A stretch of DNA of 64,000 bases from contig NZ_CP009455.1 in NCBI RefSeq assembly GCF_000759535.1, positions 2,170,001 to 2,234,000 of the forward strand, in the 5' to 3' direction. Of this stretch, positions 28,701-43,139 are shown piece after piece (positions within the stretch are counted from its first letter, which is position 1; each line of letters begins with the position of its first letter). The notes beneath the pieces were generated by a model. That model was not told where the DNA came from. It did no database searches and saw only the letters and a program-made list of their open reading frames with translations. Source of the stretch: Pseudomonas cremoricolorata. Its GTDB lineage: Bacteria > Pseudomonadota > Gammaproteobacteria > Pseudomonadales > Pseudomonadaceae. The position numbers were made by a program, and so were the translations under genes.

Positions 28701-31700
28701 CGGCACTGGCGGTTGCGTATCGGCCACGGTGATGGTGACCGGCTCAGCGCTGTTGCCGGCCGCATCGGTGGCCTCGACGCTGAGCTGCTGGCCGTTGCGT
28801 TGCACCGGTTCCAGGCTGATCTCGAAGCGGCCGCTGGCGCCGACCGTGGTGCTGCCGAGCACCTCGCCGTCAGCCCCGCGCACGGTGAGGGTAGAGCCGA
28901 CCTGGCCGATGCCGCTGAGCAGGCTGCCGCTGGCATCGACCACGATGGCCGAGGGCTGCAACGGGCCGAGCAGGTCGGGCGCGGTGACGCTGCTGGGCGC
29001 CGAGCTGTTGCCCGCCGCATCGGTGAGGCTGACATCCAGTTGCTGACCTTGAATCTGCGCCGGTTGCAGGGTCAGGCTGAAGCTGCCGTTGTCGGCCACG
29101 CTGGCGCTGCCCAGCAATTCGCCCTGGGCATTGCGCACCTCGACACGGGCACCGGCTTCGCCGCGACCGCTCAGGGTGCTGCCATCGGCGCTCAGTTGCA
29201 GGTCGCTGGCCGGTTGCGGTGCGGTGGTGTCCGGGGCCTGGGTGGGGGTGGGCAGCGAGCTGTTGCCCGCAGCGTCGACCACCACCACGCTCAGCGATTC
29301 GCCGTTGCGCAGCGGTGGCTCGAGTGGGAGATCGAAACTGCCATCAGGGTTTGTCTGGACGCTGCCAATCAGCCTGCCGTCGCTGTCGCGCACCTGCACC
29401 TCACTGCCGGCTGACGCATTGCCGCTGACACTGCTGCCATCGGCACTGACTTGAACATCGCTGGGGCTGGCTGGCAGTACGGTCGGCGGTACGCTGAACT
29501 CCAGGGTCGGCGACAGGTTGCCGGCAGCATCCTGCTGCACCACGGTCAGCTCCGCACCTGCGGTCACCGGCGGATCGAGCGTCACCCGGAAGCTGCCATC
29601 GGCGGCAACGTCGGCACTGCCCAGCAACACGCCTTCGGCATCGCGCACCTGCACCACAGCGCCCGGTTCACCGCGACCGGCCAGCACGCTGTCGGTGAGG
29701 TCGATCTGCACGTCGCTAACGGCTGCTGGAGGCGTGGTATCGGGCACTGCATAGTCGAGCGTGGTCGAGCGATTGCCGGCGGCGTCGATGACCTGCACGG
29801 CAAGCGTCTCGCCATTACGCAGCGGCGTCTCCAGGGTCAGGCTGAAACGCCCGTCGCCATCGGCCACGGTACTGCCCAGCAGCTCGCCATCGGCGTCGCG
29901 GACCTCGACCCGCGCGCCCGCTTCGGCGCTGCCGGTGAGGGTCTGTCCATCACTGAACAGCAGATCAGCGGCAGGCCCAGGCGCGACCAGGTCCGGCGCA
30001 GTCAGCGGCGCACTGCTGCTGTTGCCGGCGGCATCGGTGAGGGTCACGCGCAGCGGGCTGCCGTCGATCACCGGCGGTTGCACCTGCACGGTGAACTCAC
30101 CATTGGCCGGCACCGCCGCTTCGGCCAGCACTTGGCCCTGGGCATCCAGTACCCGCACCACGGTGCCCGGCTCGCCGCGTCCCGAGACGCGGCTGCCGTC
30201 ATTGCTGATCGCCAGGTCGGTCGGGGCCTGGGGTGGAGTGATGTCCACCGGCAGGCTGAGGTCCGGAGCACTGACGCTGCCGCTGATCGAGGTATTGCCC
30301 GCCGCATCGGTAGCGCTGACCTGCAAAGTCTGACCGTCGACCTGAACCGGGTCTAGGCTGACCACGAAGCTTCCGGTGCTGTTGGCGGTGCCGGAACCCA
30401 GCACAGTGCCTTGGGCATCGCGCACCTGCACTTGGCTACCTGGCTCGGCGCGGCCGATCAGCAGGCTGCCGTCGGCGCTGACGCTGAGCTCGACCGGCGC
30501 GTCAGGCGCGGTGAGGTCGGGCGCGGTAATGGGGGTTGGCAGCGAGCTGCTGCCATTGGCGTTCAGCGCCACCACATGTAACGGCTGACCGTCGGCAATC
30601 GGCGGATTGAGCGGCAGCGTGAAGGTGCCCTCGGCACCGACCACGACGCTCGCCAGCGTCTCGCCACTGGCATTGCGCACCTGCACGGTAACCCCTGAAG
30701 GCGCGCTGCCGCTGAGGCTGCTGCCGTCTTCTGCCAGCAGCAGATCGCCCGGGCTGGGCAAGGCCGGGATGGCCGACACCAGGTGGTTGACGAAGTCCGA
30801 CGTCAGGCCGGCCGCATCGGTCTGCACCAGCGTCAGGGTGGCGCCTGCCTGCACCGCTGGGTCCAGGGTCACAACAAAGTTGCCGTCGATGCCGACCACC
30901 CCAGTGCCCAGCAGTTGGCCATTGCCATCACGCACGCTGACCGTCGCCCCCGGCTCGCCACGCCCGCCGATCAGGCTGCCGTCGACACTGACCAGGATGT
31001 CGCTGACCGGGTCGGGCGAGCTGATGTCTGGGGCCTGGAACAGCAGCGGCGTCGAGCTGTTGCCAGCGGCGTCGAGCAGGCGGATGTCGAGGGTTTCACC
31101 GTTGAACTGCGGCACATCCAGAACCAGCTCGAAGCGGCCATCGGCGTCCACCTGGCCGCTGCCGATGAGGGTTCCGTTGGCGTCACGCACCAGCACCTGC
31201 GCACCGACCTCGCCCGTGCCGCTGAGCACGCTGCCGTCGACCAGTTGCAGGTCGCCTGGCTGCGCTGGCGGGGTCAGGTCGGGGCTGCTCAACGACACCG
31301 GGGTGGAGTCGTTGCCCGCAGCATCGGTGAGCATCACTTGCAGGCGACTGCCGTCAATCACTGGCGGATCGAGGGTGAGGCTGAATTCACCGTCGACAGT
31401 GACGACACCGCTGGCGATCACATTGCCTTGGGCATCACGCACGGTGACGGTAGTGCCCGCTTCGCCACGACCGCTCAGCTGGCTGCCACCGATGTTGATG
31501 GTAAGGCCGGTTGGCGCTTCTGGCGGCGTGTCGTCGGTTGGCGCCTCCAGGTCTGGTGCGGTGACGCTGGCGTTGGTCGAAACGTTGCCAGCGGCATCCT
31601 CGGCACTGACCTGTAGAACCTGACCTGCGGTTTGCGCCGGGTCGAGGGTGACGCTGAAGGTACCGTTGGCGGCGACCTGGGCGGTACCGATCACTGCGCC

Positions 31701-34700
31701 CTGGGCGTTCGTCACACGGATGCTGCTGCCCGCTTCGGCGCGACCGCTGAGGCTGCTGCCGTCGGCGCTGACCTGCAGTTGCGCCGGCGTGTCCGGCGCG
31801 GTGGTGTCCGGGGCGTTGAGGGTCGCGGGGATGGAGTTCTGTCCAGTGGTCGGGTCGACCGCTACCACTTCCAAGGTTTCGCCGTTGCGTTGGGCTGGGG
31901 TCAGCGTGATGGCAACGGCGCCATTGGCACCTGCCACGGCGCTGCCGAGCAGCGTGCCGTCGGCGCCGCGCACCTCGACGCGGGTGCCGGCGGTTGCGCT
32001 GCCGGTGAGCGAGCTGCCATCGGCACTGAGCAGCAGATCGCCGGGAGTGGCGGGTGCTGGGGTGCTCGGCACGCTGAACTCGGTGGCCGGCGAGGCGTTG
32101 CCCGCAGCGTCGGTCTGAACCAGGCTGATCACTTGGCCAGCGGCGAGCGGGCTGTCCAGCTCCAGCACGAAGCTGCCAGTGGCGCCGACCGCGCCGCTGC
32201 CGATCAGGTTGCCCCCGGCATCACGAACTTGCACGGTAGCGCCCGGCTCACCGTCGCCAGACACGCTCAAACCATCGGCGCTGACCACCACATCAGTGAT
32301 GGCTGCAGGCGCCGTGGTGTCTTGCGCCTGGAATTGCAGCGGGGTGGAGCTATTGCCGGCGGCGTCGACCAGGCGAATGTCGAGCAGCTCGCCGTTGCGT
32401 TGCGGCGCATCGAGGGTGACGCTGAACGTGCCGCCGGCGCCGACCTGGCCACTGCCGATGAGCGCACCTGTGGTATCACGCACCTGCACCGTGGCGCCGG
32501 ATTCGCCGTTGCCGGTGAGGGTCACGCCATCGAGCAGCGTCAACGCGGTGGGTTGCGCCGGCGCGATGAGGTCGGGGGAGGTGATCGACGTGGCCGCGGA
32601 GACATTGCCGGCTGCATCGCTCAGTTGCACCTCAAGCGTGCTGCCATCGGTGACGGCAGGGCTGAGGGTAACCGAGAAGCTGCCATCGGCGGCGACTGTT
32701 GCGCTGGCAATCAGGTTGCCTTGGGCATCGCGCACACTGACGGTGGTACCCGCCTCGCCGCGACCGCCGAGTTGGCTGCCACCGGCATTGATCACCAGGC
32801 CTGTGGGCGCCGCAGGTGGCGTGTCGTCGACCGGGGTTTCCAGGTTTGGCGCGGTGATGGCTGCGTTGTCGGAAAGGTTGCCGGCAGCGTCCTCGGCGCT
32901 GACTTGCAGGCGCTGGCCTGCGGTCTGCGGTGGGTCGAGGGTGATGGCGAAGCTGCCCGCCGCATTGATGACTGCTGTGCCCAATGGATTGCCCTGGGCA
33001 TCGACGACACGCACCGTGCTACCCGGCTCACCACGACCCGTGAGCACGCTGCCGTCTGCATTCACGGCAAGGTCGAAGGGCGCCACCGGCGCGGTGATGT
33101 CCGGCGCCTGGAACGTCAGCGGAATCGACTCGTTGCCGGCCGCATCGATCAAGCGGACGTCGATGAACTCGCCGTTGGCCTGTGCCGGGGTCAGCTCGAC
33201 ACTGAACTGGCCATTGGCAGCGACCACGCCGCTGCCGATGACTGCGCCCGCCGCATCGCGCACCTGCACGCTCGCACCCGGCTCGCCGCTGCCGGTCAGG
33301 GTCACACCTGCGGCCAAGGTCAGGTCAGTCGGCTGCGCGGGGGCGATCAGGTCTGGCGAGCGCACCGACGCCGCTTCGGAGACATTGCCCGCCGCGTCCG
33401 TCAGCGCGACTTGCAAGGCGCTGCCGTCGATCACGGCTGGGTCGAGTGAAATCGAGAACGTGCCGTCCGCAGCGACCGTGCTGGTGGCGATCAGGTTGCC
33501 TTGAGCATCACGCACGCTGACGCTGGTGCCCGCCTCGCCGCGACCGCTGAGTTGGCTGCCGCCGGCATTGATCACCAGGCCCGTGGGCGCTGCAGGTGGC
33601 GTGTCGTCGACCGGGGTTTCCAGGTTCGGCGCGGTGATGGCTGCGTTGTCGGAAAGGTTGCCGGCATCGTCCACGGCGCTGACTTGCAGGCGCTGGCCTG
33701 CGGTCTGTGGTGGGTCGAGGGTGATGGCGAAGCTGCCTGCCGCATTGATCACCACCGTGCCCAATGGGTTGCCCTGGGCATCGACTACCCGAACGGTACT
33801 GCCCGGCTCGCCACGCCCGCTGAGCACGCTGCCGTCAGCGCTGATTACCAATTCAGATGGGGTGACAGGCGGGGTGATATCTGGAGCGGTGATGCTAGTC
33901 GGAATCGAGCTCTGATCGGTGACTACGTCAACCGCGAATACTTGCAGCGCTTCGCCGTTGGCTTGTGCTGGCACCAAGGTGAGGGTGAAGGAACCGTCCT
34001 GAGCGGCGATTGCGCTGCCCAGCAGGGTGCCGTCTGCGGCGTGGACCTCGACCCGGTTTCCGGGCGTCGCGAGGCCGCTCAGTTCCGAACCATCGGCATT
34101 CAGTGCAAGCTGGGTTGGCGTGGCAGGGGCGGGGGTTGCCGGAACGGTGAAGTCAATGGCCGGCGAGGTATTGCCGGCTGCATCGGTCTGCACCAGGTTG
34201 ATGACTTCGCCAGCTTCTACTGCACCGTCCAGAGCAATGACGAAGGCGCCGTTGGCACCGACGACACCGGCACCGATGATGGCGCCAGCCGCATCACGTA
34301 CCTCCACACTGGCGCCAATCTCGCCATGGCCTGCAACCGTGCGCCCATCGGCGCTGACCACCACCTCGGTCACCGCCTCCGGCGCGGTGATATCGGGCGT
34401 CTGGAAGACCAGGGGAATCGACTCATTGCCGGCGGCATCGATCAGGTGAATGTCGATGAACTCACCATTGGCCTGGGCCGGCGCGAGTTCGACGGTGAAG
34501 CGGCCATTGGCCCCGACAGTCCCGCTGCCAATCACCGTGCCGGCAGCGTCGCGCACCTCTACCGTTGCGCCTGGTTCGCCGCTGCCGGTTAGAGTTATGC
34601 CTTCGGCCAGGGCCAGGTCAGTCGGTTGAGTAGGGGCGAGCAGGTCCGGTGAGACGACCGAGACGGCGGCGGAAGCATTGCCCGCGGCATCGGTAAGGTC

Positions 34701-37700
34701 GACTTGCAGCGTACTGCCGTCGATCACGGCTGGATCGAGGACGACCGAAAAGGTGCCATCCGCCGCAACCACACCCGTGGCGAGCACAGCGCCCTGGGCA
34801 TCGCGAATGCTGACAGTGGTTCCCACCTCGCCGCGTCCGCTCAGTTGGCTGCCGCCAGCGCTGATGAGCAGATCGGTCGGGGCTTGCGGCGGGGTATCGT
34901 CAACAGGCGTCTCAAGATTGGGGGCCGTGACCGAACCGCTTGGTGACACATTGCCAGCTGCATCTTGCGCGCTGGTTTCGAGCGTCTGACCTGCGGTCTG
35001 CGGTGGGTCGAGGGTGATGGCGAAGCTGCCCGCCGCATTAATGATCGCCGTGCCCAGGGTATTGCCCTGCGCATCGACCACCCGCACGGTACTGCCCGGC
35101 TCGCCACGCCCGCTGAGCACGCTGCCGTCTGCACTGACCGCCAATTCAGACGGTGCCACCGGCGGAGTGATATCCGGAGCGACGAGGCTGGCGGGGATCG
35201 AGGCCTGATTGGTGACCACATCAACCGCGAACACTTCCAGCACCTCGCCATTGGCTTGTGCTGGCACCAAGGTGAGGGTGAAGGAACCGTCTTGAGCGGC
35301 GATTGCGCTGCCCAGCAAGGTACCGTCTGCGGCGTGGGCCTCGACCCGGTTTCCGGGCGTTGCAACGCCGGTCAGCTCGGAGCCGTCGGCGCTCAGTGCC
35401 AGCTCGGTTGGGGTGGCAGGGGCAGGGGTCGCAGGAACGGTGAAGTCGATGGCCGGCGAGGCATTGCCGGCTGCATCGGTCTGCACCAGGTTGATGACTT
35501 CGCCAGCTTCTACTGCACCGTCAAGGGCAATGACGAACGCGCCGTTGGCTCCGACTACGCCGGTGCCGATGATGGCGCCAGCCGCATCACGTACCTCCAC
35601 ACTGGCGCCAATCTCGCCATGGCCTGCAACCGTGCGCCCGTCGGCGCTGACTACTACCTCGGCCACCGCCTCCGGCGCGGTGATATCGGGCGTCTGGAAG
35701 GCCAGCGGAATCGACTCGTTGCCGGCCGCATCGATCAGGTGAACGTCGATGAACTCGCCATTAGCCTGGGCCGGCGCGAGTTCGACGGTGAAGCGGCCAT
35801 TGGCCCCGACAGTCCCGCTGCCAATCACCGCGCCGGCAGCATCGCGCACCTCTATCGTCGCACCTGGCTCACCGCTGCCGGTCAAGGTTATGCCTTCGGC
35901 CAGGGCCAGATCGGTCGGTTGTGCAGGGGCGAGCAGGTCTGGCGAGACTACCGAAACGGCGGGGGAGACATTACCCGCTGCGTCGGTCAGATCGACTTGG
36001 ACGCTGCTGCCATCGATGACAGCGGGATCGAGCACGACCGAGAAGCGGCCATCAGCTCCAACCGTGCCGCTGGCGAGGACAGTACCCTGCCCATCGCGCA
36101 CGGTCACGGTCGTGCCCGCTTCACCACGGCCCGACAACTCGCGCCCGGCCGCATTGATCAAGAGGCCGGTGGGTGCATCCGGCGGGGTATCGTCGATCGG
36201 CGTTTGGAGGTTCGGTGCGATGACCGAGGTGGTCGGCGACACGTTACCAGCAGCATCCTGTGCAGTGGCTTGAAGATTCTGCCCTTCGGTCTGGGCAGGC
36301 ACCAGCGTCACTGCGAAGCTGCCTGCGGCGCCCACCACAGCGTTGCCCAGTTCATTGCCCTGTGCATCGACGATTCGAACCGTACTCCCCGGCTCACCGC
36401 GACCGCTGAGCACGCTGCCATCGGCGCTGACCTGCAATTCGAACGGCGCGACAGGCGCGGTGGTATCAGGCGTCTGGAAGGCCAGCGGCAGCGATTCATT
36501 GCCGGCTGCATCGATCAGGCGGATATCGATGAACTCGCCATTGGCCTGGACTGGGTTCAGCTCGATGCTGAATCGCCCGTCCGCCCCGACGACACCGCTG
36601 CCGATGATTTCGCCAGTGGCACTATGCACCTGTATGGTCGCGCCCGGTTCGCCGCTACCGGTCAGCGTGACGCCTTCTGTCAACGCCAGATCAGTCGGCT
36701 GCGCTGGTGCAGTCAAATCCGGCGAGGCCACCGAAGCAGGCTGCGAGGTGTTACCTGCGGCATCGGTCAGCTCGACCTGCAAGCTGCTGCCGTCGATGAC
36801 CGCTGGAGCGAGCGTGATGGCGAACGTTCCATCAGCCGCAACGATCCCCGTGGCGATTACATTGCCTTGGGCATCACGCACGGTCACGGTGGTGCCGGCT
36901 TCGCCCCGGCCAGAGAGCTCGCGACCACTGGCGTTGATCACCAGGTCGGTTGGCGCTTGCGGCGCGGTGTTATCGATAGGGGTTTCGAGGTTGGGTGCAG
37001 TGATCGAACTGGCGGGCGATAGGTTGCCAGCAGTGTCCTGTGCTGCGGCCTCCAGGGTCTGCCCTTCGGTCTGTGCCGGAACCAACGTAACGGCGAAACT
37101 GCCCGCCGCATTCACCACGGCAGTGCCTAACTGATTGCCTTGAGCATCAGTGACACGAATGGTGCTGCCCGGCTCACCGCGTCCGGTAAGTACGGTGCCG
37201 TCGGCGCTTACGGCCAACTCACCTGGCGCAGCAGGTGGGGTGATATCTGGAGCAGTGATGGTAGCGGGGATCGAGGCTTGATCGGTGACTACGTCAACCG
37301 CGAATACTTCCAGCGCTTCGCCGTTAGCTTGTGCTGGCACGAGGGTAATGGTGAACGAGCCGTCTTCACCCGCAATAGCGCTGCCCAGTAACGTGCCGTC
37401 AGCGCCACGTACCTCGACACGATTGCCGGGCGTGGCGAGGCCGCTCAGTTCTGAGCCATCGGCGTTCAATGCCAGTTCGGTCGGGGTAGAAGGAGCAGGG
37501 GTCGACGGAACAGTGAAGTCAGTGGGCGGAGAGGTATTTCCAGCCGCATCGGTTTGCACCAGATTAATCACATCGCCAGCCGCAATGGCACCGTTCAATG
37601 CGATAACGAATCCACCATTTGCACCGACAACACCGGTGCCAATCACCGTTCCCTGAGCATCACGAACCTCAACACTGGCGCCAATCTCACCACGTCCTGA

Positions 37701-40700
37701 AACCGTCAGCCCATTAGCACTGACCACCACATCGGTAACCGCCTCGGGTGCAGTGATATCCAGTGCCTGGAATGTCAGCGGAATCGACACGTTACCGGCT
37801 GCATCGACCAGGCGGATATCGATGAACTCGCCATTCGCTTGTGCAGGGTTCAGCTCGATGCTGAATCGCCCATCCGCGCCCACCACTCCAGTGCCAATCA
37901 CTGCACCGGCAGCATCCCGCACCTGGACGGTCGCGCCCGGTTCGCCAAGGCCAGTTAATGTCACGCCTTCCGCCAAGGCCACCTCAGTTGGTTGCGCAGG
38001 GGCGATCAAGTCCGGGGAGGCTACCGAAGCGGGTTCGGAAACATTGCCTGCGGCATCAGTCAGATCGACCTGCAAACTGCTGCCGTCGATGACCGCTGGA
38101 TCCAGCACAACCGAGAACGTGCCATCAGCGGCAACAACGCCGCTGGCAATCACGTTGCCTTGCGCATCGCGAATCGTAACGGTGGTGCCAGCTTCACCAC
38201 GTCCTGACAATTGACGACCACCTGAGCTAACGACCAGATCGGTCGGAGCATCTGGCGGGGTGGTGTCGATTGGTGCTTCAAGATTCGGTGCGGTGACCGA
38301 ACTCGCTGGCGATACGTTGCCAGCGGCATCCTGTGCCGTGGCGTCTAGGCTCTGACCTTCGGTCTGTGCCGGGACCAGCGTCACGGCGAAGCTCCCTGCA
38401 GCGTTCACCACAGCGCTGCCAAGCTCGTTGCCCTGCGCATCGACCACCCGAACGGTGCTGCCTGGCTCTCCACGACCAGTAAGCACGCTGCCGTCTGCGC
38501 TAACGGCCAATTCGGATGGCGCCAGCGGAGGTGTGGTATCTGGCGCTGTGATGCTGGCCGGGATCGAGGCCTGATCGGTGACTACGTCGACCGCGAATAC
38601 TTCCAGCGCTTCGCCGTTGGCTTGTGCTGGCACGAGGGTAATGGTGAATGATCCGTCTTCACCCACAATAGCGCTGCCCAGCAACGTGCCATCTGCGCCA
38701 TGCACCTCGACACGGTTTCCGGGCGTGGCGAGGCCGCTCAGTTCTGAGCCATCGGCGTTCAATGCCAGTTCGGTCGGGGTAGAAGGAGCAGGGGTCGACG
38801 GAACAGTGAAGTCAGTGGGCGGAGAGGTATTTCCAGCCGCATCGGTTTGCACCAGATTGATCACATCCCCAGCCGCAACGGCACTGTCCAGGGCAATAAC
38901 GAACGCTCCATTTGCACCGACAACACCGGTGCCGATGACGGTGCCCTGAGCATCACGAACCTCGACACTGGCCCCAATCTCACCGCGCCCGGAAACCGTC
39001 AGCCCATCGGCACTGACCACTACATCGGTAACCGCCTCCGGCGCCGTGATATCCGGTGCCTGGAAGGCCAGCGGCAGTGATTCGTTGCCGGCTGCATCGC
39101 CCAGGCGGATATCGATGAACTCGCCATTAGCTTGTGCGGGGTCGAGCTCTACGGTGAACCGACCGTCAGCTCCGACGACTCCGCTGCCAATCACCGCCCC
39201 AGAAGCATCACGCACCTGCACGGTCGCGCCCGGCTCACCAAGGCCAGTCAATGTCACGCCTTCGGCCAAGGCCAATTCAGTCGGCTGCGCCGGTGCAATC
39301 AGGTCCGGCGAGGCAACGGAAGCGGATTCGGAAACATTGCCTGCGGCATCAGTCAGATCGACCTGCAAGCTGCTGCCGTCGATGACTGCGGGATCAAGCA
39401 CAACCGAGAACGTGCCATCAGCCGCAACGACCCCTGTGGCAATCACATTGCCTTGGGTATCACGCACGGTCACGGTGGTGCCCGCCTCGCCACGGCCGTT
39501 CAGTTGGTTGCCGCCTGTGCTAACGATCAAATCGATCGGGGCATCCGGCGGAGTGTTGTCGATTGGTGCTTCAAGATTCGGTGCAGTGACCGAACTCGCT
39601 GGCGATACGTTGCCGGCAGCATCTTGAGCCGTCGCCTCTAGGCTTTGCCCTTCTGTCTGGGCCGGCACCAGCGTCACGGCGAAACTACCCGTCGCGTTCA
39701 CCACAGCGCTGCCCAGCTCGTTGCCCTGCGCATCGACGACCCGAACGGTACTACCCGGTTCACCGCGTCCGGTAAGCACGGAACCGTCTGCGCTTACGGC
39801 CAACTCGGATGGCGCCACAGGTGGTGTGATATCTGGCGCGGTGATGCTGGCCGGAATGGAGCTTTGTTCGGTTTCGGTATTGATCGCCACCACTTCCAGC
39901 GCTTCGCCGTTGGCCTGTGGCGGCACCAAGGTGATGTTGAAAGAACCATCCTCTGCAGCGATTCCACTGCCCAGCAACGCTCCGTCTGCGCCATGCACCT
40001 CGACACGGTTTCCGGGCGTGGCGAGGCCGCTCAGTTCGGAGCCATCGGCATTCAGCGCAAGCTCGGACGGGGTGGCAGGGGCAGGGGTGGAAGGCACGGT
40101 GAAATCGGTGGCTGGCGAGGCATTACCTGCCGCATCGGTCTGCACCAGATTGATCACGTCGCCAGCAGCGACAGCATCCTCCAGAGCGATGACAAAGGCA
40201 CCATTCGCCCCGACCACACCGGTGCCGATCAGAACACCCTGCGCATCTCGAATCTCAACGAGCGCCCCAATCTCACCGCGCCCCGAAACCGTCAGCCCAT
40301 CAGCACTGACCACCACATCGGTAACCGCCTCGGGTGCGGTGATATCCGGTGCCTGGAATGCCAGCGGAATAGACACGTTACCGGCTGCATCGACCAGGCG
40401 GATATCGATGAACTCGCCATTAGCTTGTGCGGGGTCGAGCTCTACGGTGAACCGACCGTCAGCTCCGACGACTCCGCTGCCAATCACCGCCCCAGAAGCA
40501 TCACGCACCTGCACGGTCGCGCCTGGTTCTCCAAGGCCAGTCAGCGTCACGCCTTCGGCCAAGGCCAGATCAGTCGGCTGTGCCGGTGCAATCAAATCGG
40601 GGGATTGAACCGAAGCCGGCTCGGACACATTACCTGCGGCGTCGGTTAGATCGACCTGCAAGCTGCTGCCGTCGATAACTGCGGGATCGAGAGCAACCGA

Positions 40701-43139
40701 AAAGGTGCCGTCGGCTTGAACTGTACCGGTTGCGATCACGTTGCCTTGAGCATCGCGGACATTCACCGTGGTGCCCGCTTCGCCACGACCGCTCAGTTGT
40801 GTACCACCTGCACTGACAGCCAAGTCGATCGGGGCGTCAGGTGGGGTGTTGTCGATAGGCGCTTCGAGATTAGGTGCTATCACCGAGGCGGCGGGCGATA
40901 TGTTGCCAGCGGCATCTTGAGCCGTGGCTTCCAGGCTTTGCCCTTCGGTCTGTGCTGGAACCAGCGTTACTGCGAAGCTACCCGCCGCGTTCACCACGGC
41001 AGTGCCTAGCTGATTGCCTTGAGCATCAGTGACACGAATGGTGCTGCCCGGCTCTCCACGACCGGTGAGCACGGTGCCGTCGGCGCTTACCGACAATTCG
41101 GATGGAGCAACAGGCGGGGTGATATCTGGAGCAGTGATGCTGGCCGGAATCGAACTTTGTTCAGTTTCGGTGTTGATCGCCACCACCTCCAGGGCTTCGC
41201 CATTTGCCTGTGGAGGGACGAGGGGGATGGTGAACGAACCATCTTCACCCGCGATAGCACTGCCCAGCAGCATGCCGTCTGCGCCATGGACCTCTACACG
41301 GTTTCCGGGCGTAGCAAGGCCGCTCAGTTCTGAGCCATCGGCGTTCAATGTCAGTTCGGTCGGGGTGGCAGGAGCAGGCGTTGCAGGAACGGTAAAGTCT
41401 GTAGCTGGCGAGGCATTACCTGCCGCATCGGTCTGCACCAGATTGATCACATCGCCAGCCGCTACGGCACTGTCCAGGGCAATAACGAACGCGCCATTTG
41501 CACCGACAACACCGGTGCCGATGACGGTGCCCTGAGCATCACGAACCTCAACACTAGCCCCAATCTCACCACGCCCCGAAACCGTCAGCCCATCGGCACT
41601 GGCCACTACATCGGTAACCGCCTCCGGCGCCGTGATATCCGGTGCCTGGAAGGCCAGCGGCAGCGACTCATTGCCGGCGGCATCGATCAGGCGGATATCG
41701 ATGAACTCGCCATTGGCCTGCGCTGGGTCCAATTCGACACTAAAGCGCCCATCCGCGCCCACCACGCCACTGCCAATCACCGCCCCCGAAGCATCACGCA
41801 CCTGCACGGTCGCACCTGGTTCACCAAGGCCGGTCAACGTCACGCCATTGGCCAGAGCCAGTTCAGTCGGCTGCGCCGGCGCAATCAAGTCTGGCGAGGC
41901 TACCGAAGCGGGTTCAGAAACATTGCCTGCGGCATCAGTCAGATCGACCTGCAAACTGCTGCCGTCGATGACCGCCGGATCAAGCACCACCGAGAACGTG
42001 CCATCAGCGGCAACAACGCCGGTTGCAATCACATTCCCCTGGGCATCACGCACGGTCACGCCAGTGCCCGCTTCGCCGCGGCCACTCAGCTGACGGCCAC
42101 TGTCACCGATCACCAGGTCGGTCGGCGCATCGGGTGCGGTGGTATCGGGCGGTGTGCCAAGGTCGGGCGCGCTAAGGGTGCTGGCCGGTGAGGTGTTGCC
42201 AGCGGCGTCGGTGGCGCTGACTTGCAGGGTCTGACCGGCGCTCTGCGGCGGTTGCAGGGTCACGCTGAAGGTGCCGTCGCTGCCGCTGACGGCGCTGCCC
42301 AGCAGGTTGCCATCGGGGCCGCGCACCTGAACCGTCGAGCCAGGCTCGGCGCGGCCGCTGAGCACGATGCCTGCGTCATCGATGGCGAGGTCGGTGGGGG
42401 CGGCAGGCGGTGTGATGTCCGGGGCGTTGACGGTGCCGGGTTCGGAGACGTTGCCGGCGGCGTCGGTCAGGTCGACGGTCAGCACCTCGCCATTGGCCTG
42501 GGGCGTGTCCAGCGCCAGATCGAAGCTACCGTCGCTGCCAACAGTGCCGCTGCCGATCAGATTGCCGGCTGCGTCGCGCACGTTGACCGTCGTGCCGGCC
42601 TCGCCGCGGCCGCTCAGGCGCAGGCCATCGGCTGACACCAGCAGGTCGGTGGGGCGGGCCGGGGCCAGGGTGTCGCCGGGTTCACCGTCGCCACCACCTC
42701 CGCCGCCACCTGCGCCGCCTGCCGCGGCGGCTGCACCGCCCAGGCCCAGCAGGCCAAGACCGGCAATGGCGAAGGTCTGCGTGGCATTGCCAGCCTCGCC
42801 GATGCCCGCCATCAGCTGATCGAGGGAGGCGACTTCATCGAAAGTGAAACCGCTGAAGGCATTGGCATCATAAGACGCCTGCCAGAGAGTGCCGTCTTCG
42901 CCGACGAAGACCAGGTCGTTGCCCACGCCGTCCTGATCGACGACGAAGAAGTTGGCGATGGTCAGACGCTCCCCAGACTTGAGTGTCAGCACCAAGTTCT
43001 GCCCGTTGCGGCTGACCGAGGCCACCGCATCTGGCGACACCGGCAGTTGCACCAGGCTTGCTTGGCTGAGACTGAGGTCGCCCCAGGCGGTTTGCGACAG
43101 TTGGGCGGTATTTTTATCGGCGACGACGATGTTATCCAT
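19767..43139 (-). CDS. lapF: Giant surface adhesin LapF, type I secreted, about 81 Ig-like repeats
   Basis: 7790 residues from ATG 43139, with a GGGAG site 5 bases upstream; the GTG two codons earlier has no spacing for a ribosome site. Residues 1-120 match the BapA/LapF prefix-like domain (MDNIVVADKNTAQLSQTAWG). Then comes a hydrophobic Gly/Ala-rich stretch (about 123-150), probably lodging in the outer-membrane pore. From about 156 to 7095 I count 81 bacterial Ig-like units of about 86 residues with the pattern TPPxAPxDLxVSADGxxLSG / GEPGxTVxVRDAxG / DAAGNxS. Two tandem VCBS-like modules follow (each with LYGTLL..ADGSY.YT and HPNG.SDTA), then an acidic C-terminus ending QNGIHVV that holds the secretion signal. 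No RTX nonapeptides or cysteines were noticed. LapF mediates cell-cell adhesion and biofilm architecture. I recall the KT2440 protein at about 6300 residues, so this one would be longer. Confidence 0.9.
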   Translation of the reverse strand: MDNIVVADKNTAQLSQTAWGDLSLSQASLVQLPVSPDAVASVSRNGQNLVLTLKSGERLTIANFFVVDQDGVGNDLVFVGEDGTLWQASYDANAFSGFTFDEVASLDQLMAGIGEAGNATQTFAIAGLGLLGLGGAAAAAGGAGGGGGGGDGEPGDTLAPARPTDLLVSADGLRLSGRGEAGTTVNVRDAAGNLIGSGTVGSDGSFDLALDTPQANGEVLTVDLTDAAGNVSEPGTVNAPDITPPAAPTDLAIDDAGIVLSGRAEPGSTVQVRGPDGNLLGSAVSGSDGTFSVTLQPPQSAGQTLQVSATDAAGNTSPASTLSAPDLGTPPDTTAPDAPTDLVIGDSGRQLSGRGEAGTGVTVRDAQGNVIATGVVAADGTFSVVLDPAVIDGSSLQVDLTDAAGNVSEPASVASPDLIAPAQPTELALANGVTLTGLGEPGATVQVRDASGAVIGSGVVGADGRFSVELDPAQANGEFIDIRLIDAAGNESLPLAFQAPDITAPEAVTDVVASADGLTVSGRGEIGASVEVRDAQGTVIGTGVVGANGAFVIALDSAVAAGDVINLVQTDAAGNASPATDFTVPATPAPATPTELTLNADGSELSGLATPGNRVEVHGADGMLLGSAIAGEDGSFTIPLVPPQANGEALEVVAINTETEQSSIPASITAPDITPPVAPSELSVSADGTVLTGRGEPGSTIRVTDAQGNQLGTAVVNAAGSFAVTLVPAQTEGQSLEATAQDAAGNISPAASVIAPNLEAPIDNTPPDAPIDLAVSAGGTQLSGRGEAGTTVNVRDAQGNVIATGTVQADGTFSVALDPAVIDGSSLQVDLTDAAGNVSEPASVQSPDLIAPAQPTDLALAEGVTLTGLGEPGATVQVRDASGAVIGSGVVGADGRFTVELDPAQANGEFIDIRLVDAAGNVSIPLAFQAPDITAPEAVTDVVVSADGLTVSGRGEIGALVEIRDAQGVLIGTGVVGANGAFVIALEDAVAAGDVINLVQTDAAGNASPATDFTVPSTPAPATPSELALNADGSELSGLATPGNRVEVHGADGALLGSGIAAEDGSFNITLVPPQANGEALEVVAINTETEQSSIPASITAPDITPPVAPSELAVSADGSVLTGRGEPGSTVRVVDAQGNELGSAVVNATGSFAVTLVPAQTEGQSLEATAQDAAGNVSPASSVTAPNLEAPIDNTPPDAPIDLIVSTGGNQLNGRGEAGTTVTVRDTQGNVIATGVVAADGTFSVVLDPAVIDGSSLQVDLTDAAGNVSESASVASPDLIAPAQPTELALAEGVTLTGLGEPGATVQVRDASGAVIGSGVVGADGRFTVELDPAQANGEFIDIRLGDAAGNESLPLAFQAPDITAPEAVTDVVVSADGLTVSGRGEIGASVEVRDAQGTVIGTGVVGANGAFVIALDSAVAAGDVINLVQTDAAGNTSPPTDFTVPSTPAPSTPTELALNADGSELSGLATPGNRVEVHGADGTLLGSAIVGEDGSFTITLVPAQANGEALEVFAVDVVTDQASIPASITAPDTTPPLAPSELAVSADGSVLTGRGEPGSTVRVVDAQGNELGSAVVNAAGSFAVTLVPAQTEGQSLDATAQDAAGNVSPASSVTAPNLEAPIDTTPPDAPTDLVVSSGGRQLSGRGEAGTTVTIRDAQGNVIASGVVAADGTFSVVLDPAVIDGSSLQVDLTDAAGNVSEPASVASPDLIAPAQPTEVALAEGVTLTGLGEPGATVQVRDAAGAVIGTGVVGADGRFSIELNPAQANGEFIDIRLVDAAGNVSIPLTFQALDITAPEAVTDVVVSANGLTVSGRGEIGASVEVRDAQGTVIGTGVVGANGGFVIALNGAIAAGDVINLVQTDAAGNTSPPTDFTVPSTPAPSTPTELALNADGSELSGLATPGNRVEVRGADGTLLGSAIAGEDGSFTITLVPAQANGEALEVFAVDVVTDQASIPATITAPDITPPAAPGELAVSADGTVLTGRGEPGSTIRVTDAQGNQLGTAVVNAAGSFAVTLVPAQTEGQTLEAAAQDTAGNLSPASSITAPNLETPIDNTAPQAPTDLVINASGRELSGRGEAGTTVTVRDAQGNVIATGIVAADGTFAITLAPAVIDGSSLQVELTDAAGNTSQPASVASPDLTAPAQPTDLALTEGVTLTGSGEPGATIQVHSATGEIIGSGVVGADGRFSIELNPVQANGEFIDIRLIDAAGNESLPLAFQTPDTTAPVAPFELQVSADGSVLSGRGEPGSTVRIVDAQGNELGNAVVGAAGSFAVTLVPAQTEGQNLQATAQDAAGNVSPTTSVIAPNLQTPIDDTPPDAPTGLLINAAGRELSGRGEAGTTVTVRDGQGTVLASGTVGADGRFSVVLDPAVIDGSSVQVDLTDAAGNVSPAVSVVSPDLLAPAQPTDLALAEGITLTGSGEPGATIEVRDAAGAVIGSGTVGANGRFTVELAPAQANGEFIDVHLIDAAGNESIPLAFQTPDITAPEAVAEVVVSADGRTVAGHGEIGASVEVRDAAGAIIGTGVVGANGAFVIALDGAVEAGEVINLVQTDAAGNASPAIDFTVPATPAPATPTELALSADGSELTGVATPGNRVEAHAADGTLLGSAIAAQDGSFTLTLVPAQANGEVLEVFAVDVVTNQASIPASLVAPDITPPVAPSELAVSADGSVLSGRGEPGSTVRVVDAQGNTLGTAIINAAGSFAITLDPPQTAGQTLETSAQDAAGNVSPSGSVTAPNLETPVDDTPPQAPTDLLISAGGSQLSGRGEVGTTVSIRDAQGAVLATGVVAADGTFSVVLDPAVIDGSTLQVDLTDAAGNASAAVSVVSPDLLAPTQPTDLALAEGITLTGSGEPGATVEVRDAAGTVIGSGTVGANGRFTVELAPAQANGEFIDIHLIDAAGNESIPLVFQTPDITAPEAVTEVVVSADGRTVAGHGEIGASVEVRDAAGAIIGAGVVGANGAFVIALDGAVEAGEVINLVQTDAAGNTSPAIDFTVPATPAPATPTQLALNADGSELSGLATPGNRVEVHAADGTLLGSAIAAQDGSFTLTLVPAQANGEALQVFAVDVVTDQSSIPTSITAPDITPPVTPSELVISADGSVLSGRGEPGSTVRVVDAQGNPLGTVVINAAGSFAITLDPPQTAGQRLQVSAVDDAGNLSDNAAITAPNLETPVDDTPPAAPTGLVINAGGSQLSGRGEAGTSVSVRDAQGNLIATSTVAADGTFSISLDPAVIDGSALQVALTDAAGNVSEAASVRSPDLIAPAQPTDLTLAAGVTLTGSGEPGASVQVRDAAGAVIGSGVVAANGQFSVELTPAQANGEFIDVRLIDAAGNESIPLTFQAPDITAPVAPFDLAVNADGSVLTGRGEPGSTVRVVDAQGNPLGTAVINAAGSFAITLDPPQTAGQRLQVSAEDAAGNLSDNAAITAPNLETPVDDTPPAAPTGLVINAGGSQLGGRGEAGTTVSVRDAQGNLIASATVAADGSFSVTLSPAVTDGSTLEVQLSDAAGNVSAATSITSPDLIAPAQPTALTLLDGVTLTGNGESGATVQVRDTTGALIGSGQVGAGGTFSVTLDAPQRNGELLDIRLVDAAGNSSTPLQFQAQDTTAPAAITDVVVSADGLSVSGDGEPGATVQVRDAGGNLIGSGAVGATGSFVLELDSPLAAGQVISLVQTDAAGNASPATEFSVPSTPAPATPGDLLLSADGSSLTGSATAGTRVEVRGADGTLLGSAVAGANGAVAITLTPAQRNGETLEVVAVDPTTGQNSIPATLNAPDTTAPDTPAQLQVSADGSSLSGRAEAGSSIRVTNAQGAVIGTAQVAANGTFSVTLDPAQTAGQVLQVSAEDAAGNVSTNASVTAPDLEAPTDDTPPEAPTGLTINIGGSQLSGRGEAGTTVTVRDAQGNVIASGVVTVDGEFSLTLDPPVIDGSRLQVMLTDAAGNDSTPVSLSSPDLTPPAQPGDLQLVDGSVLSGTGEVGAQVLVRDANGTLIGSGQVDADGRFELVLDVPQFNGETLDIRLLDAAGNSSTPLLFQAPDISSPDPVSDILVSVDGSLIGGRGEPGATVSVRDGNGQLLGTGVVGIDGNFVVTLDPAVQAGATLTLVQTDAAGLTSDFVNHLVSAIPALPSPGDLLLAEDGSSLSGSAPSGVTVQVRNASGETLASVVVGAEGTFTLPLNPPIADGQPLHVVALNANGSSSLPTPITAPDLTAPDAPVELSVSADGSLLIGRAEPGSQVQVRDAQGTVLGSGTANSTGSFVVSLDPVQVDGQTLQVSATDAAGNTSISGSVSAPDLSLPVDITPPQAPTDLAISNDGSRVSGRGEPGTVVRVLDAQGQVLAEAAVPANGEFTVQVQPPVIDGSPLRVTLTDAAGNSSSAPLTAPDLVAPGPAADLLFSDGQTLTGSAEAGARVEVRDADGELLGSTVADGDGRFSLTLETPLRNGETLAVQVIDAAGNRSTTLDYAVPDTTPPAAVSDVQIDLTDSVLAGRGEPGAVVQVRDAEGVLLGSADVAADGSFRVTLDPPVTAGAELTVVQQDAAGNLSPTLEFSVPPTVLPASPSDVQVSADGSSVSGNASAGSEVQVRDSDGRLIGSVQTNPDGSFDLPLEPPLRNGESLSVVVVDAAGNSSLPTPTQAPDTTAPQPASDLQLSADGSTLSGRGEAGARVEVRNAQGELLGSASVADNGSFSLTLQPAQIQGQQLDVSLTDAAGNSSAPSSVTAPDLLGPLQPSAIVVDASGSLLSGIGQVGSTLTVRGADGEVLGSTTVGASGRFEISLEPVQRNGQQLSVEATDAAGNSAEPVTITVADTQPPVPVEALQLSADGLQVSGQGEPGAVVSVRDAEGNLLGTAQVDADGTFSVALDSAQRNGQALTVEQRDGAGNVSEQVALQAPDLEAPAAPSQLLLSADGSSLRGVGEPGSTVTVRNAQGIVGSAEVGADGRFDVPLTPVQLNGQTLSTTLTDAAGNVSPPVELTAPDLQPPLAADDLQLNPAGTLLSGSAEPGSRVEVRDSAGALLGSAEVDDDGRFSIGLPAQTNGEVLAVQVIDGQGNASPSVSYTAADTTAPDAPSELQINANGSQISGRGEVGSVVEVRNAAGVLVGEGVVLEGGAFLINLQPVQNDGQALQVTLRDAAGNTSDATDITAPNTAPPEVPASATVSLDGSTVRGSAPGASQVVVRDAAGNELASAPVAADGSFSVSLPTPLTNGEALNIVAVDGGGLSSAELPVNAPDTTPPAAAQNVLVSADGSSISGNAEPGSTVIVRNASGELGQTTAASDGSFVLTVEPPLQPGDSAEVVVIDQAGNETLEPVDVSIPPAQTIDTPSALQISLDGFSLSGQATAGTVVSVSAGGVALGSATVGSDGSFLVFFERAQLNGEVLQVSARADNGVVSEPASITARDITPPDAPLQIVVERDGAALSGRGEAGATVNVRDSADNLLGSAQVDDNGAFRVDLQPAPVNGETLLVRLIDAAGNPSPISSVQAPDLTPPQAATALALNDAATVLSGRGEAGASVSVRDADGVVLATGTVNQSGQFQITLPNAQISGARLQVILTDAAGNISDPASIATPDRTPPAAVSQLNLSVDGSQLTGTGEPGASVRVRTAAGAVVGSTTVDADGYFTVTFTPPQNSGQPLGVTQIDAAGNVSPAVTLNTPDLQAPAAPTNVVLNLDGLTLHGAGEAGSQVSVRNAQGALIGSGQVAANGSFTLTLDTAQLNGEALSVVLTDAAGNASTPTGLVAPDLTPPAAPDDLLLASGGLQLSGSAEAGSTINVRSASGELLGTGQVASNGTFQLTLNSPQTNGEQLSITATDAAGNVSPVANLEAADTTPPALVTHLAVAADGSSLSGHGEIGATVTVRNADGEVLGSAEVDVDGHFVVTLTPAAAPGTTLSVVQADASNNVSLSETFTLPGVLAPDVPAALQLAADGQSVSGQGSVGSRIEVYGPTGLLLGSAEVRADGSFTVNLQQPQANGERLEVSAVGEDGTRSLPVLLQAPDTTAPQPLSELRLSVDGLVVTGRGEAGAQVSITGNGGVILGSGQVGPNGRFSVTLSAAQINGERLDASQTDAAGNISDSVSLLAPDLVAPEPAEDLQLSAGGSLLQGTGEAAARVTVLAADGNVIGTGMVRLDGTFQVELLPLQANGETFKVVLTDAAGNRSAAAEFTAPDTTPPAALSEVSVAADGASLSGRGEVGAVVTVRNADGERLGSATVDASGNFTLVLDPPLGNAEVLSLSQADAAGNVSPVITLTTPDFTPPAALTEVRISADGAVVTGRGEPGASVTISDAAGVVIGRGVVQADETFRIELTPAQINNQQLSVVQADPPGNLSEAVLIIAPDRTPPLAPQELRLNAAGDLLSGTGEANTTVRVSVAGVEVGRATVGADGRFSVALDTPLRNGEQLQVSLEDASQNRSLPTLLDAPDLTPPAQVVASLDAEGTRLSGSGEAGARLTVLNNFGDRVGQGTIDAEGRFVVELTPPQRNGEVLSIVAQDAAGNPSQPLLLTAPDLTPPAQLQDLSLNPTGTTLTGSGEVGSMVRVRGADGNLLGEAVVPAGGTFVITLLPPQANGQTLTVTAADAAGNTSTPQTVVAADTTAPDPVSNLSINSAYEVLVGRGEVGATVRVVQGGTLLGSAEVGADGRFQVSLSPKANPGVELAVTQTDAAGNTSTVVPYTTPLEPVPATPTLVQLSVDGLVVSGRATAGSEVRVVNAAGTLLGSAQASAAGTFTVELNQAQLNGQRLDVSARSSGGESQPFVLIAADVTPPAQPLVTALSANGLVLSGSGEAGATVTVRSANGTLLGTAVVGLAGTFSVDLASAQLNGQVLSVRQTDAAGNPSPVLSYTVPDVQAPLAPSNLQLLDGGSRLSGVGEAGARIEVTGRGGVVLGSTTVAANGQFSLVLNAVQADGQVLTVRQTDAAGNTSASASLTAPDTTPPALPSATLNAAGTLLSGSGEAGARVIVRSNGNVIGQAVVAANGTFVVTLTAAQINHETLSVSLTDAAGNVSPVLTLTAPDITPPAIAANLLVNATGSELSGTGEVGARVTVRGADGSVLQSGVVIGADGTFRVVLNPAQDNGQRLSVTLTDPRGNVSGIATVVAPDVDADRPVVASDNLVTAVVNLAPVTSKLPTINDSYTLLVGLNTTKAFTWSVAAGTTVNPTLTLSVDNLIGVLNNPTFTLQVKNAAGAWVDVATGGSSALLTLVLLPGVGVRAEIGALRAGDYQLLVTSGGLSAVTTVNTRLELEVTSLTQFTGSGVVKSGNVITDPGTDGTPDILGPDNGAVLQVLKGGVYVNAGAATSVQGLYGTLLIKADGSYTYTPSGTPASVGKVDVFSYQLSHPNGKSDTANLYVRIDSPQATEIWNDANLGAPATVVDAVDDVGRSTVSLTNKLTPGSQAFDPISLAGLAGTRVGTVTHTVANNTTADLEVNLTTNSLLNLGNSITLELSKLGSNGRYTVVNTVSGSQLLDLLGSGGKSHVFRDQTAGTYQVTIKAAVTLGLSGSVTASLNTTTKSLTEFVVNTATTATGNLLNGDTLGSSLTTLSVQTAANSYALPGYNGVSVAGLYGTLLVFADGSYSYTLKPGLSAAVVGQVDTFNYTLTHPNGSSDTAQLKITIATGASGARMLEAQADEGSEAVVLAALADQQDDGQDAAASAAATPGTDDEPGLAAQTADDAVLAEETGFASIGADNADTTLLWQGGDASIDLASLVGEVHDLEVLDLNASSAVSLSLTLDDVLAVTQEQGNTLLIKGDDADTVRLGDAWSLTGQDVADGIDYNQYTAAEDPSQQLWVQNGIHVV
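32822..33601 (-). repeat. Shortened three-domain copy (eighth) of the lapF module
   Basis: Same 513-base loss and the same chimeric junction (TAPVAPF) as the fifth copy. Its first 60 bases (33601-33660) differ from those of the next copy (32821-32880) at a single position. Confidence 0.85.
36188..36967 (-). repeat. Shortened three-domain copy (fifth) of the lapF module
   Basis: 780 bases instead of 1293: exactly 513 bases (171 codons, two domains) are absent. The junction fuses the start of the third domain opener to the fifth, giving the chimeric TAPVAPF. Confidence 0.85.

What the first reader, a model, noticed from the sequence alone, without database searches (positions are those of the whole stretch)
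30238..42149. Second-order repeat in lapF: a five-domain cassette of exactly 1293 bp repeated ten times
Reading one marker through the gene gives steps of 1293 bases seven times, 780 twice and 1290 once. Each 1293-base cassette encodes five distinct Ig-like domain types in the same order. Adjacent domains inside a cassette differ, but domains 431 codons apart are nearly the same. The unit being amplified is thus a block of five domains, not the single domain. This may keep neighbouring domains different, limiting misfolding, while allowing length change in large steps.
Basis: seen in the sequence. Interest (0 to 1): 0.8.

Follow-up and report, generated by a model that had tools for sequence, protein, structure and literature searches.

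The report
Five-domain repeat cassette in LapF adhesin
A giant Pseudomonas surface adhesin appears to have grown in blocks of five different Ig-like domains rather than one domain at a time, and in related bacteria the same block, in the same order, sets a ladder of protein lengths.

Summary
The repeat is real and as described. The 7790-aa LapF-type adhesin (19767-43139, minus strand) has 81 Ig-like domains; its N-proximal part repeats A-B-C-D-E in steps of 1293 bp seven times, 780 twice and 1290 once (control). The cassette is shared: 68 of 98 related LapF proteins carry 2-9 copies, and close relatives differ mostly by whole cassettes (59, 64, 69, 74 domains). So block growth and the length-step prediction hold in relatives. 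In the window the copies are old (c1-c4 0.86-0.90 alike in protein, 0.36-0.48 of 4-fold sites changed) and mosaic. The misfolding rationale is not supported: neighbours are no less alike than other pairs, the order ranks 9 of 12 for dissimilarity, and sister LapFs duplicate single domains. New point: each full cassette has one joint (C/D) short of putative Ca2+-site residues and one long linker (E/A), both recurring across species. Best read as a titin-like super-repeat that works like a periscope stalk; new variant of a known kind.

The parts
19767..43139 (-). lapF-like gene, BapA/Bap/LapF-family giant adhesin, 7790 aa from the ATG at 43139 (ORF from GTG 43145 is 7792 aa)
42771..43139 (-). 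BapA_N prefix domain
   Evidence: PF22783 E 4.5e-38; NF033677
40854..42146 (-). cassette c1 (A-B-C-D-E), 1293 bp
39561..40853 (-). cassette c2, 1293 bp
38268..39560 (-). cassette c3, 1293 bp
36975..38267 (-). cassette c4, 1293 bp
36195..36974 (-). short cassette c5 (A-B-E, lacks C and D), 780 bp; a counterpart is present in P. cremoricolorata DSM 17059
34902..36194 (-). cassette c6, 1293 bp
33609..34901 (-). cassette c7, 1293 bp
32829..33608 (-). short cassette c8 (A-B-E), 780 bp; its B/E junction resembles that of c5, while the apparent DSM 17059 counterpart has a normal D/E junction
31536..32828 (-). cassette c9, 1293 bp, diverged (0.67 aa identity to c1)
30246..31535 (-). cassette c10, 1290 bp, diverged; groups with the P. 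cremoricolorata cassette in the tree
28956..30245 (-). decayed cassette c11 (a-B-c-d-e labels), 1290 bp
41127..41384 (-). D-type domain of c1, lacking the linker Asp, the GxGE acidic residue and the DAAGN Asp
39834..40091 (-). D-type domain of c2 (three of three ligand positions lost)
38541..38798 (-). D-type domain of c3 (two of three lost)
37248..37505 (-). D-type domain of c4 (two of three lost)
35175..35432 (-). D-type domain of c6 (two of three lost)
33882..34139 (-). D-type domain of c7 (two of three lost)
31809..32066 (-). D-type domain of c9 (two of three lost)
30519..30770 (-). D-type domain of c10 (three of three lost)
40854..40871 (-). example of the 6-residue extra linker between E and the next A; all 11 domain spacings >=89 aa in the gene are E-to-A
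21861..30245 (-). divergent half: domains 49-81, no five-domain period at lag 5; ligand-poor domains at spacings kept across species (starts with decayed c11)
20319..21716 (-). C-terminal region of BapA/Bap/LapF adhesins
   Evidence: NF045619 E 1.7e-116; same place
18266..19699 (-). TolC-family outer-membrane protein of type I secretion
   Evidence: TIGR01844, PF02321
16113..18347 (-). type I secretion permease/ATPase (LssB family)
   Evidence: TIGR03375 E 4.2e-251
14932..16116 (-). HlyD-family type I secretion adaptor
   Evidence: TIGR01843 E 2.7e-98

Best explanation
The repeat is a higher-order (super-repeat) array in the N-proximal part of a LapF-type adhesin with type I secretion genes beside it. 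A run of five already different Ig-like domains was duplicated head to tail, probably before the P. putida group diversified. From then on the only long, highly similar DNA lies five domains apart, so homologous recombination (unequal exchange and gene conversion) acts in that register and adds, removes or patches whole cassettes, mostly at the N-proximal end, while the C-proximal cassettes and the distal half stay fixed. Each full cassette is also a structural module: four joints keep the acidic residues of the putative interdomain Ca2+ site, one (C/D) lacks most of them, and one (E/A) has a linker about six residues longer; growth by cassettes adds complete segments. Shown by computation: the period, the shared type order, block-step length differences between relatives, mosaic identity, protein-level constraint, and the recurring position of ligand-poor domains. 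Inferred: the ancestral duplication, recombination as the agent, Ca2+ binding itself, mechanical consequences, and orientation on the cell.
For: Period and map. Family and secretion genes. Same A-B-C-D-E order in many P. putida-group loci and in 68 of 98 proteins with 2-9 copies. Length ladder; the published KT2440 LapF length, 6310 aa (PMC4278767, passage), falls on a rung. Tree of 68 cassettes from 23 loci (7 further loci dropped as duplicates of the same contig): the C-terminal-most counted cassettes of 20 of the 23 loci fall in one clade; the exceptions are the window, L031 and L047; window c1, c2, c3, c4, c6, c7 and c9 form a window-only clade; c10 pairs with P. cremoricolorata. In all 11 arrays tabulated the most alike pair lies among the first five copies and the last copy is 0.51-0.61 identical to the rest. 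Recombination in register: c2/c3 B 0.93, c3/c4 C-D 0.90/0.93 with a 140-bp identical run, c6/c7 B-C 0.92/0.94 but A 0.72; c8 carries a c5-like B/E junction where the apparent DSM 17059 counterpart has a normal D/E junction; N-proximal domains of DSM 17059 mostly have several about equally good window matches (roughly 84-88%), whereas most domains elsewhere have one clear counterpart (about 85-97%). Constraint: aa identity 0.86-0.90 in c1-c4 with 0.36-0.48 of 4-fold sites changed, against 0.58 expected for unrelated codons. Ligand co-loss: over 2195 domains of 53 proteins odds ratios 177, 76, 105; the six pairs among columns 1, 25, 71, 75 are the top six of 231 conserved-column pairs (phi 0.55-0.73, median 0.02). 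Position of ligand-poor domains: spacing mostly 5 in cassettes, last two spacings 7 and 9 in 67 of 68 cassette proteins.
Against: No recombination event was observed directly and no second complete genome of the window's own species was available: the DSM 17059 assembly breaks inside the array, so the c8 counterpart is uncertain (its D best matches window c6, its E window c8). The window's own copies are mostly too diverged for frequent exchange today. Off-ladder alleles exist (43, 67, 68 domains), so multiples of five are not obligatory. A cassette-free LapF of 64 domains exists (L088, 6327-aa frame), so the cassette is not the only way to a long LapF. Ca2+ ligands are assigned by position from SiiE, not by structure; 71% of clear D-type domains keep the DAAGN Asp. 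AlphaFold gives the C/D joint no low-confidence stretch, so C/D need not be flexible. Ladder pairs share ancestry and are not independent.
Confidence: 0.8

Rival explanations
1. The cassette is kept because neighbouring domains must differ to avoid tandem misfolding: single-domain duplications are purged, leaving block duplications.
For: Neighbour identity in window cassettes c1-c4 is 0.30-0.55, around the below-50% said to be usual between neighbours in large multidomain proteins (PMC8201768, passage). 0 of 68 cassette LapFs have a neighbour pair >=0.75, and in that set of 98 cassette LapFs reach 7515 aa while cassette-free ones stop at 5358 aa. In two of 14 tails neighbours are slightly less alike than random pairs.
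Against: Order ranks 9 of 12 for dissimilarity; no neighbour effect in 12 of 14 tails; 25 of 30 cassette-free LapFs carry near-identical neighbours; L082 has both modes in one protein. Outside the set of 98, L088 is cassette-free with 64 domains, so length does not need cassettes. MpIBP/MpAFP has about 120 tandem copies of an identical repeat (PMC4083281, abstract in search listing; 100% identity, PMC7493085, passage).
Confidence: 0.1
2. Neutral origin only: the first duplication happened to span five domains, recombination keeps the register, and neither the block size nor its joints matter.
For: Recombination register alone explains the ladder; related adhesins use one-, two- and five-domain units, and other giant frames of the order show other periods.
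Against: Protein sequence of each type is held while many silent sites have changed, and positions of ligand-poor domains and of the long E/A linker recur across species.
Confidence: 0.35
3. Assembly artefact of long repeats.
For: Tandem repeats are known to cause assembly errors (PMC6868369, abstract in search listing); the DSM 17059 draft breaks in the array.
Against: Window cassettes c1-c8 differ by 15-29% in DNA, longest shared exact run 140 bp; the window's genome is one contig and the frame is open throughout; ladder rungs occur on chromosome-sized contigs of relatives.
Confidence: 0.03

Closest known systems
LapF of Pseudomonas putida KT2440 (BapA/Bap/LapF family)
   Same: N-terminal BapA_N, long Big_6 array, C-terminal adhesin region and adjacent type I secretion genes in the window; KT2440 LapF is 6310 aa, first gene of an operon with an ABC transporter (PMC4278767, passage), a length on the ladder found here
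   Different: That paper describes 'only one large repeat domain'. No title, abstract start or passage that I saw describes a five-domain unit or length ladder
Periscope Proteins (SasG, Aap, Rib, Sgo0707, CdrA)
   Same: Surface stalks whose length varies between strains by repeat number, with recombination proposed (PMC8201768, PMC9704523, passages)
   Different: There highly similar domains are neighbours (SasG alternates two domain kinds); here neighbours are about 45% identical and similarity returns only every fifth domain
Titin A-band super-repeats
   Same: Domains at equal super-repeat positions resemble each other more than their neighbours, recursive block duplication, position-specific linkers, age gradient along the array (PMC10665226, passages)
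   Different: Muscle protein with an Fn3/Ig mixture; no relation by sequence was tested. In titin the youngest part is said to be the middle of the C-zone, here the N-proximal end
SiiE of Salmonella and MpAFP extender domains
   Different: No five-domain unit in the passages read; SiiE type II site residues were not looked for in the window
Bap C-region of Staphylococcus aureus (PDB 7dm0; species recalled)
   Different: The match covers only about two domains; anchoring differs (recalled)

Membership tests
BapA/Bap/LapF family large adhesin | N-terminal BapA_N prefix domain | tested here: met
   PF22783 130 bits against cut-off 27
BapA/Bap/LapF family large adhesin | C-terminal region NF045619 over the curated cut-off | tested here: met
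   390 bits against cut-off 180
BapA/Bap/LapF family large adhesin | Array of bacterial Ig-like domains (Big_6) | tested here: met
   Big_6 in all four gene segments scanned; 81 domains by own HMM
BapA/Bap/LapF family large adhesin | Type I secretion genes beside it | tested here: met
   TolC, ABC and HlyD genes at 14932-19699, same strand
BapA/Bap/LapF family large adhesin | Role in biofilm and adhesion | not testable with these tools
   Reported for P. putida LapF (PMC4278767, passage)
Periscope Proteins | Highly similar neighbouring repeat domains | tested here: not met
   Neighbours 0.30-0.55 identical in c1-c4; similarity at lag 5 and its multiples
Periscope Proteins | Repeat number varies between closely related strains | tested here: inconclusive
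   Met in P. putida-group relatives; no second complete genome of the window's species
Periscope Proteins | Rod-like folded array | tested here: inconclusive
   AlphaFold five beta-sandwich domains, pLDDT 95, pTM 0.78 for ABCDE and 0.56 for CDEAB; model coordinates were not examined
Titin-type super-repeat (works like, not a member) | Positional similarity across blocks exceeds that between neighbours | tested here: met
   Lag 5 identity 0.73 against 0.44-0.48 at lags 1-4
Titin-type super-repeat (works like, not a member) | Homology to titin domains | not tested
   Only fold-level matches to many Ig/Fn3 proteins were seen
Type I Ca2+ site of BIg domains | Linker Asp plus two acidic residues at a domain interface | tested here: inconclusive
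   Columns 1, 25, 71 acidic and co-lost; matched to SiiE by position only; PMC5466336 says LapF has type I site residues (passage)

The most novel reading that the evidence does not exclude
LapF of the P. putida group is a length-variable stalk whose growth unit is a mechanically complete segment: three domains and two domains, with a Ca2+-site-free joint between them and a lengthened linker at the segment end. Growth by whole segments keeps joint density constant and neighbours dissimilar, so the adhesin can vary in length by recombination without making runs of identical neighbours, easing the conflict that identical-neighbour periscope stalks are said to face.
Probability: 0.35. Interest if true: 0.75.

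Novelty: new variant of a known kind. Interest (0 to 1): 0.6.

Why it matters
It shows in a bacterial adhesin the kind of super-repeat layout known from titin, shared across species and varying in copy number among close relatives in steps of about 429-431 residues. This gives a natural test of why multidomain proteins keep neighbours different: sister LapF lineages show one-, two- and five-domain repeats, so folding, secretion and length variation can be compared within one family. It also warns that short-read assemblies are likely to break in or miscount this gene, and it predicts regularly spaced Ca2+-independent joints in a protein of the biofilm matrix.

Tried and rejected
Tandem Repeats Finder reported no array inside the gene, probably because its longest period here is 500 bp. 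The class-wide search with BapA_N gave one genome over the cut-off, the window's own (1 of 321).

Neighbour-difference selection was tested three ways and dropped as the main cause. Independent origin of the two short cassettes was considered; c5 is shared with DSM 17059 while the apparent c8 counterpart is a full cassette end, and c8 carries the c5-like junction, so copying is likelier. P. monteilii-type P0075 and P0077 also have two A-B-E cassettes with a different B/E junction, so absence of the C-D pair recurs. Reading C/D as a flexible hinge was weakened: the model containing C/D but not E/A has pTM 0.78, the one containing both 0.56, which points to E/A as the looser joint; pTM is only suggestive.

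Rows dropped: 7 loci duplicating other loci's contigs, and also L084 and L091 with 5 and 4 domains before the 53-protein counts; L090 had no domain found. Cassettes with under 4 clear type labels or outside 410-450 aa were left out of the 68-cassette tree. A1 holds 42 and A2 43 sequences, from the window and from loci L031-L072 only; A2 left out 4 of the 47 listed. Papers read only as passages: PMC5466336, PMC7493085, PMC10665226, PMC9180339, PMC7716237, PMC4278767, PMC5094663, PMC10619420, PMC7616799, PMC8201768, PMC9704523.

Full report
Observation. The open frame 19767-43145 on the minus strand encodes 7792 aa without an internal stop; the likely start is the ATG at 43139. It has BapA_N at the N-terminus, Big_6 domains, and the BapA/Bap/LapF C-terminal region, and is followed by TolC, ABC and HlyD genes of type I secretion. 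Offsets between shared exact 12-mers peak at 1293 (1181 pairs) with overtones, against 27 at 255 and at most 10 at any offset in 20 codon shuffles.

Age and constraint. Window cassettes c1-c4 are 0.86-0.90 identical in protein and 0.79-0.85 in DNA, yet 0.36-0.48 of their 4-fold sites differ (0.32 for c6/c7; 0.47-0.55 between c1-c4 and c6-c7), against 0.58 expected for unrelated codons of this gene. So they are old copies held at protein level, not a fresh amplification; selection for silent divergence could also raise these figures. By contrast, in an unnamed relative with a 4.69-Mb one-contig genome (L074) the first four counted cassettes differ at only 0.05-0.10 of 4-fold sites from one to the next, the later ones at 0.50-0.57. 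Local identity in the window is mosaic (c2/c3 B 0.93; c3/c4 C-D 0.90/0.93; c6/c7 B-C 0.92/0.94 beside A 0.72), with exact runs up to 140 bp, as expected from gene conversion in register.

Relatives. Of 149 genomes of the genus, 37 have a C-terminal match over the family cut-off, some of these only through joined weaker matches. Twenty regions were fetched, and 42 named loci came. Labelling domains with HMMs of the window's five types shows the order A-B-C-D-E in many P. putida-group loci and in one P. fluorescens isolate (L071); apart from the window, 1-7 copies per locus passed the stricter filter, many loci covering only part of the gene. P. graminis LapF loci (L060-L062) show no clear copy. 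In an N-terminal search, 98 proteins (one per 90% cluster) were found; 68 have 2-9 cassettes and 30 none.

Length ladder. In the largest cluster with tails >=95% identical, 20 proteins have 43 (1), 59 (2), 64 (3), 69 (7) and 74 (7) domains. Over all 648 pairs with tails >=90% identical, the domain difference is 0 in 171, 5 in 242, 10 in 87, 15 in 30 and another number in 118. Of 477 pairs differing by more than 40 aa, 336 lie within 6 aa of a multiple of 429 or 430. Several rungs lie on contigs of chromosome size, for example P0058 (5881 aa), P0067 (6310), P0013 (6738), P0054 (7167). Pairs share ancestry and are not independent counts.

Tree. In a midpoint-rooted tree of 68 cassettes from 23 loci, the C-terminal-most counted cassettes of 20 loci fall in one clade (not those of the window, L031 and L047), window c1, c2, c3, c4, c6, c7 and c9 form a window-only clade, and c10 pairs with the P. 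cremoricolorata cassette. So the unit has multiplied separately in different lineages. P. cremoricolorata DSM 17059 has the gene on two contigs. It has the c5 counterpart as the same short A-B-E cassette (E domain 97.6% in DNA). The cassette before its c9 counterpart has D and a normal D/E junction; its E is nearest to window c8 (88.6%) but its D to window c6 (92.6%), and the contig ends there, so it is an apparent counterpart only. The window's c8 instead carries a c5-like junction.

Joints. Three acidic positions (linker Asp, Glu of GxGE, Asp of DAAGN) match by position the type I Ca2+ ligands described for SiiE: 117 of domain n-1, 43 and 97 of domain n; the same paper says LapF has such residues (PMC5466336, passages). 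In 2195 domains of 53 proteins they are lost together (odds ratios 177, 76, 105), also without D-type domains, and with Asn75 they give the six strongest co-variations among 231 pairs of conserved columns. No clear D-type domain keeps all three (0 of 87; 25% lose all, 71% keep the third). In the 68 cassette proteins ligand-poor domains recur mostly every fifth domain and end with spacings 7 and 9 in 67 of 68. E/A is the only long linker in the window (11 of 11 spacings >=89 aa) and is 90-93 aa in 70 of 78 clear E-A pairs of the survey. AlphaFold gives five beta-sandwich domains with pLDDT 95; Bap C-region and SiiE are the nearest adhesin structures. pTM falls to 0.56 in the register that includes E/A.

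Misfolding idea. The Periscope Proteins paper states that identical neighbours break a rule that neighbours in large multidomain proteins are usually below 50% identical (PMC8201768, passages). LapF cassettes keep close to that rule (mean neighbour identity 0.45 in the 68; the largest in each protein 0.53-0.65) while still varying in length. But no clear sign of selection for dissimilar neighbours was found (two of 14 tails slightly in favour), 25 of 30 cassette-free LapFs in the set contain near-identical neighbours, and L088 reaches 64 domains without cassettes. The by-product reading stays open.

Literature. Searches on LapF repeats, higher-order repeats in adhesins, giant adhesin copy number, super-repeats, LapF 6310, periscope proteins and LapF polymorphism gave no title or abstract start, and the passages read gave no text, that describes a five-domain unit or block-wise length ladder in LapF. 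Only open-licence papers are held, and the original LapF paper (Martinez-Gil 2010) was not read, so it may be described there.

Verdict. A real super-repeat, shared and copy-number variable among relatives; ordinary in its likely mechanism (recombination), unusual in its unit and in the regular joints that the unit carries.

Noticed in passing
L102 (G469:C16:76000-95743), frame L102_2; hit C16:80118-81634: P. cremoricolorata DSM 17059 has a second, small LapF-like gene (open frame 1225 aa, 10 domains labelled .eABEABCDE, own BapA_N-like start and LapF-like C-terminus) just downstream of lapF; the window has TolC there instead.
   Followed up: partly
P0065 (5358 aa), P0082 (5111 aa): Cassette-free LapF proteins with a two-domain period (high identity at lags 2, 4, 6), a third amplification mode beside one and five domains.
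   Followed up: no
L088 (G042): A cassette-free LapF-family frame of 6327 aa with 64 domains and no strong repeat offset: long without cassettes or single-domain copies.
   Followed up: no
L104, L105, L107, L113, L118, L111: Other giant adhesin-like frames of the order show strongest repeat offsets of 558-636 bp (possibly two domains; domain length not determined) and in L111 of 4293 bp; 20 loci examined.
   Followed up: partly
L062, L069, L061, L081, L082, L067: LapF loci with near-identical single domains among the first six found (279-, 276- or 255-bp steps): the N-proximal end varies whatever the unit.
   Followed up: partly
P0075, P0077 (7263 aa): P. monteilii-type LapFs have two A-B-E short cassettes separated by two full ones, the same layout as window c5-c8 but with a different B/E junction.
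   Followed up: partly
window 30246-36974: Offset 3366 (780 + 2 x 1293) is the second-best whole-gene diagonal by identity, a possible third-order block c5-c7 / c8-c10; DSM 17059 data favour copying of the short-cassette junction.
   Followed up: partly
window 43336-44886: Gene upstream of lapF, same strand, scores as nitric oxide reductase regulator NorR (NF003451, 760 bits); no link to lapF was tested.
   Followed up: no
L090, L091: Two LapF C-terminal loci lie on frames dominated by 6-bp-period repeats, with 0 and 4 Ig-like domains found.
   Followed up: no
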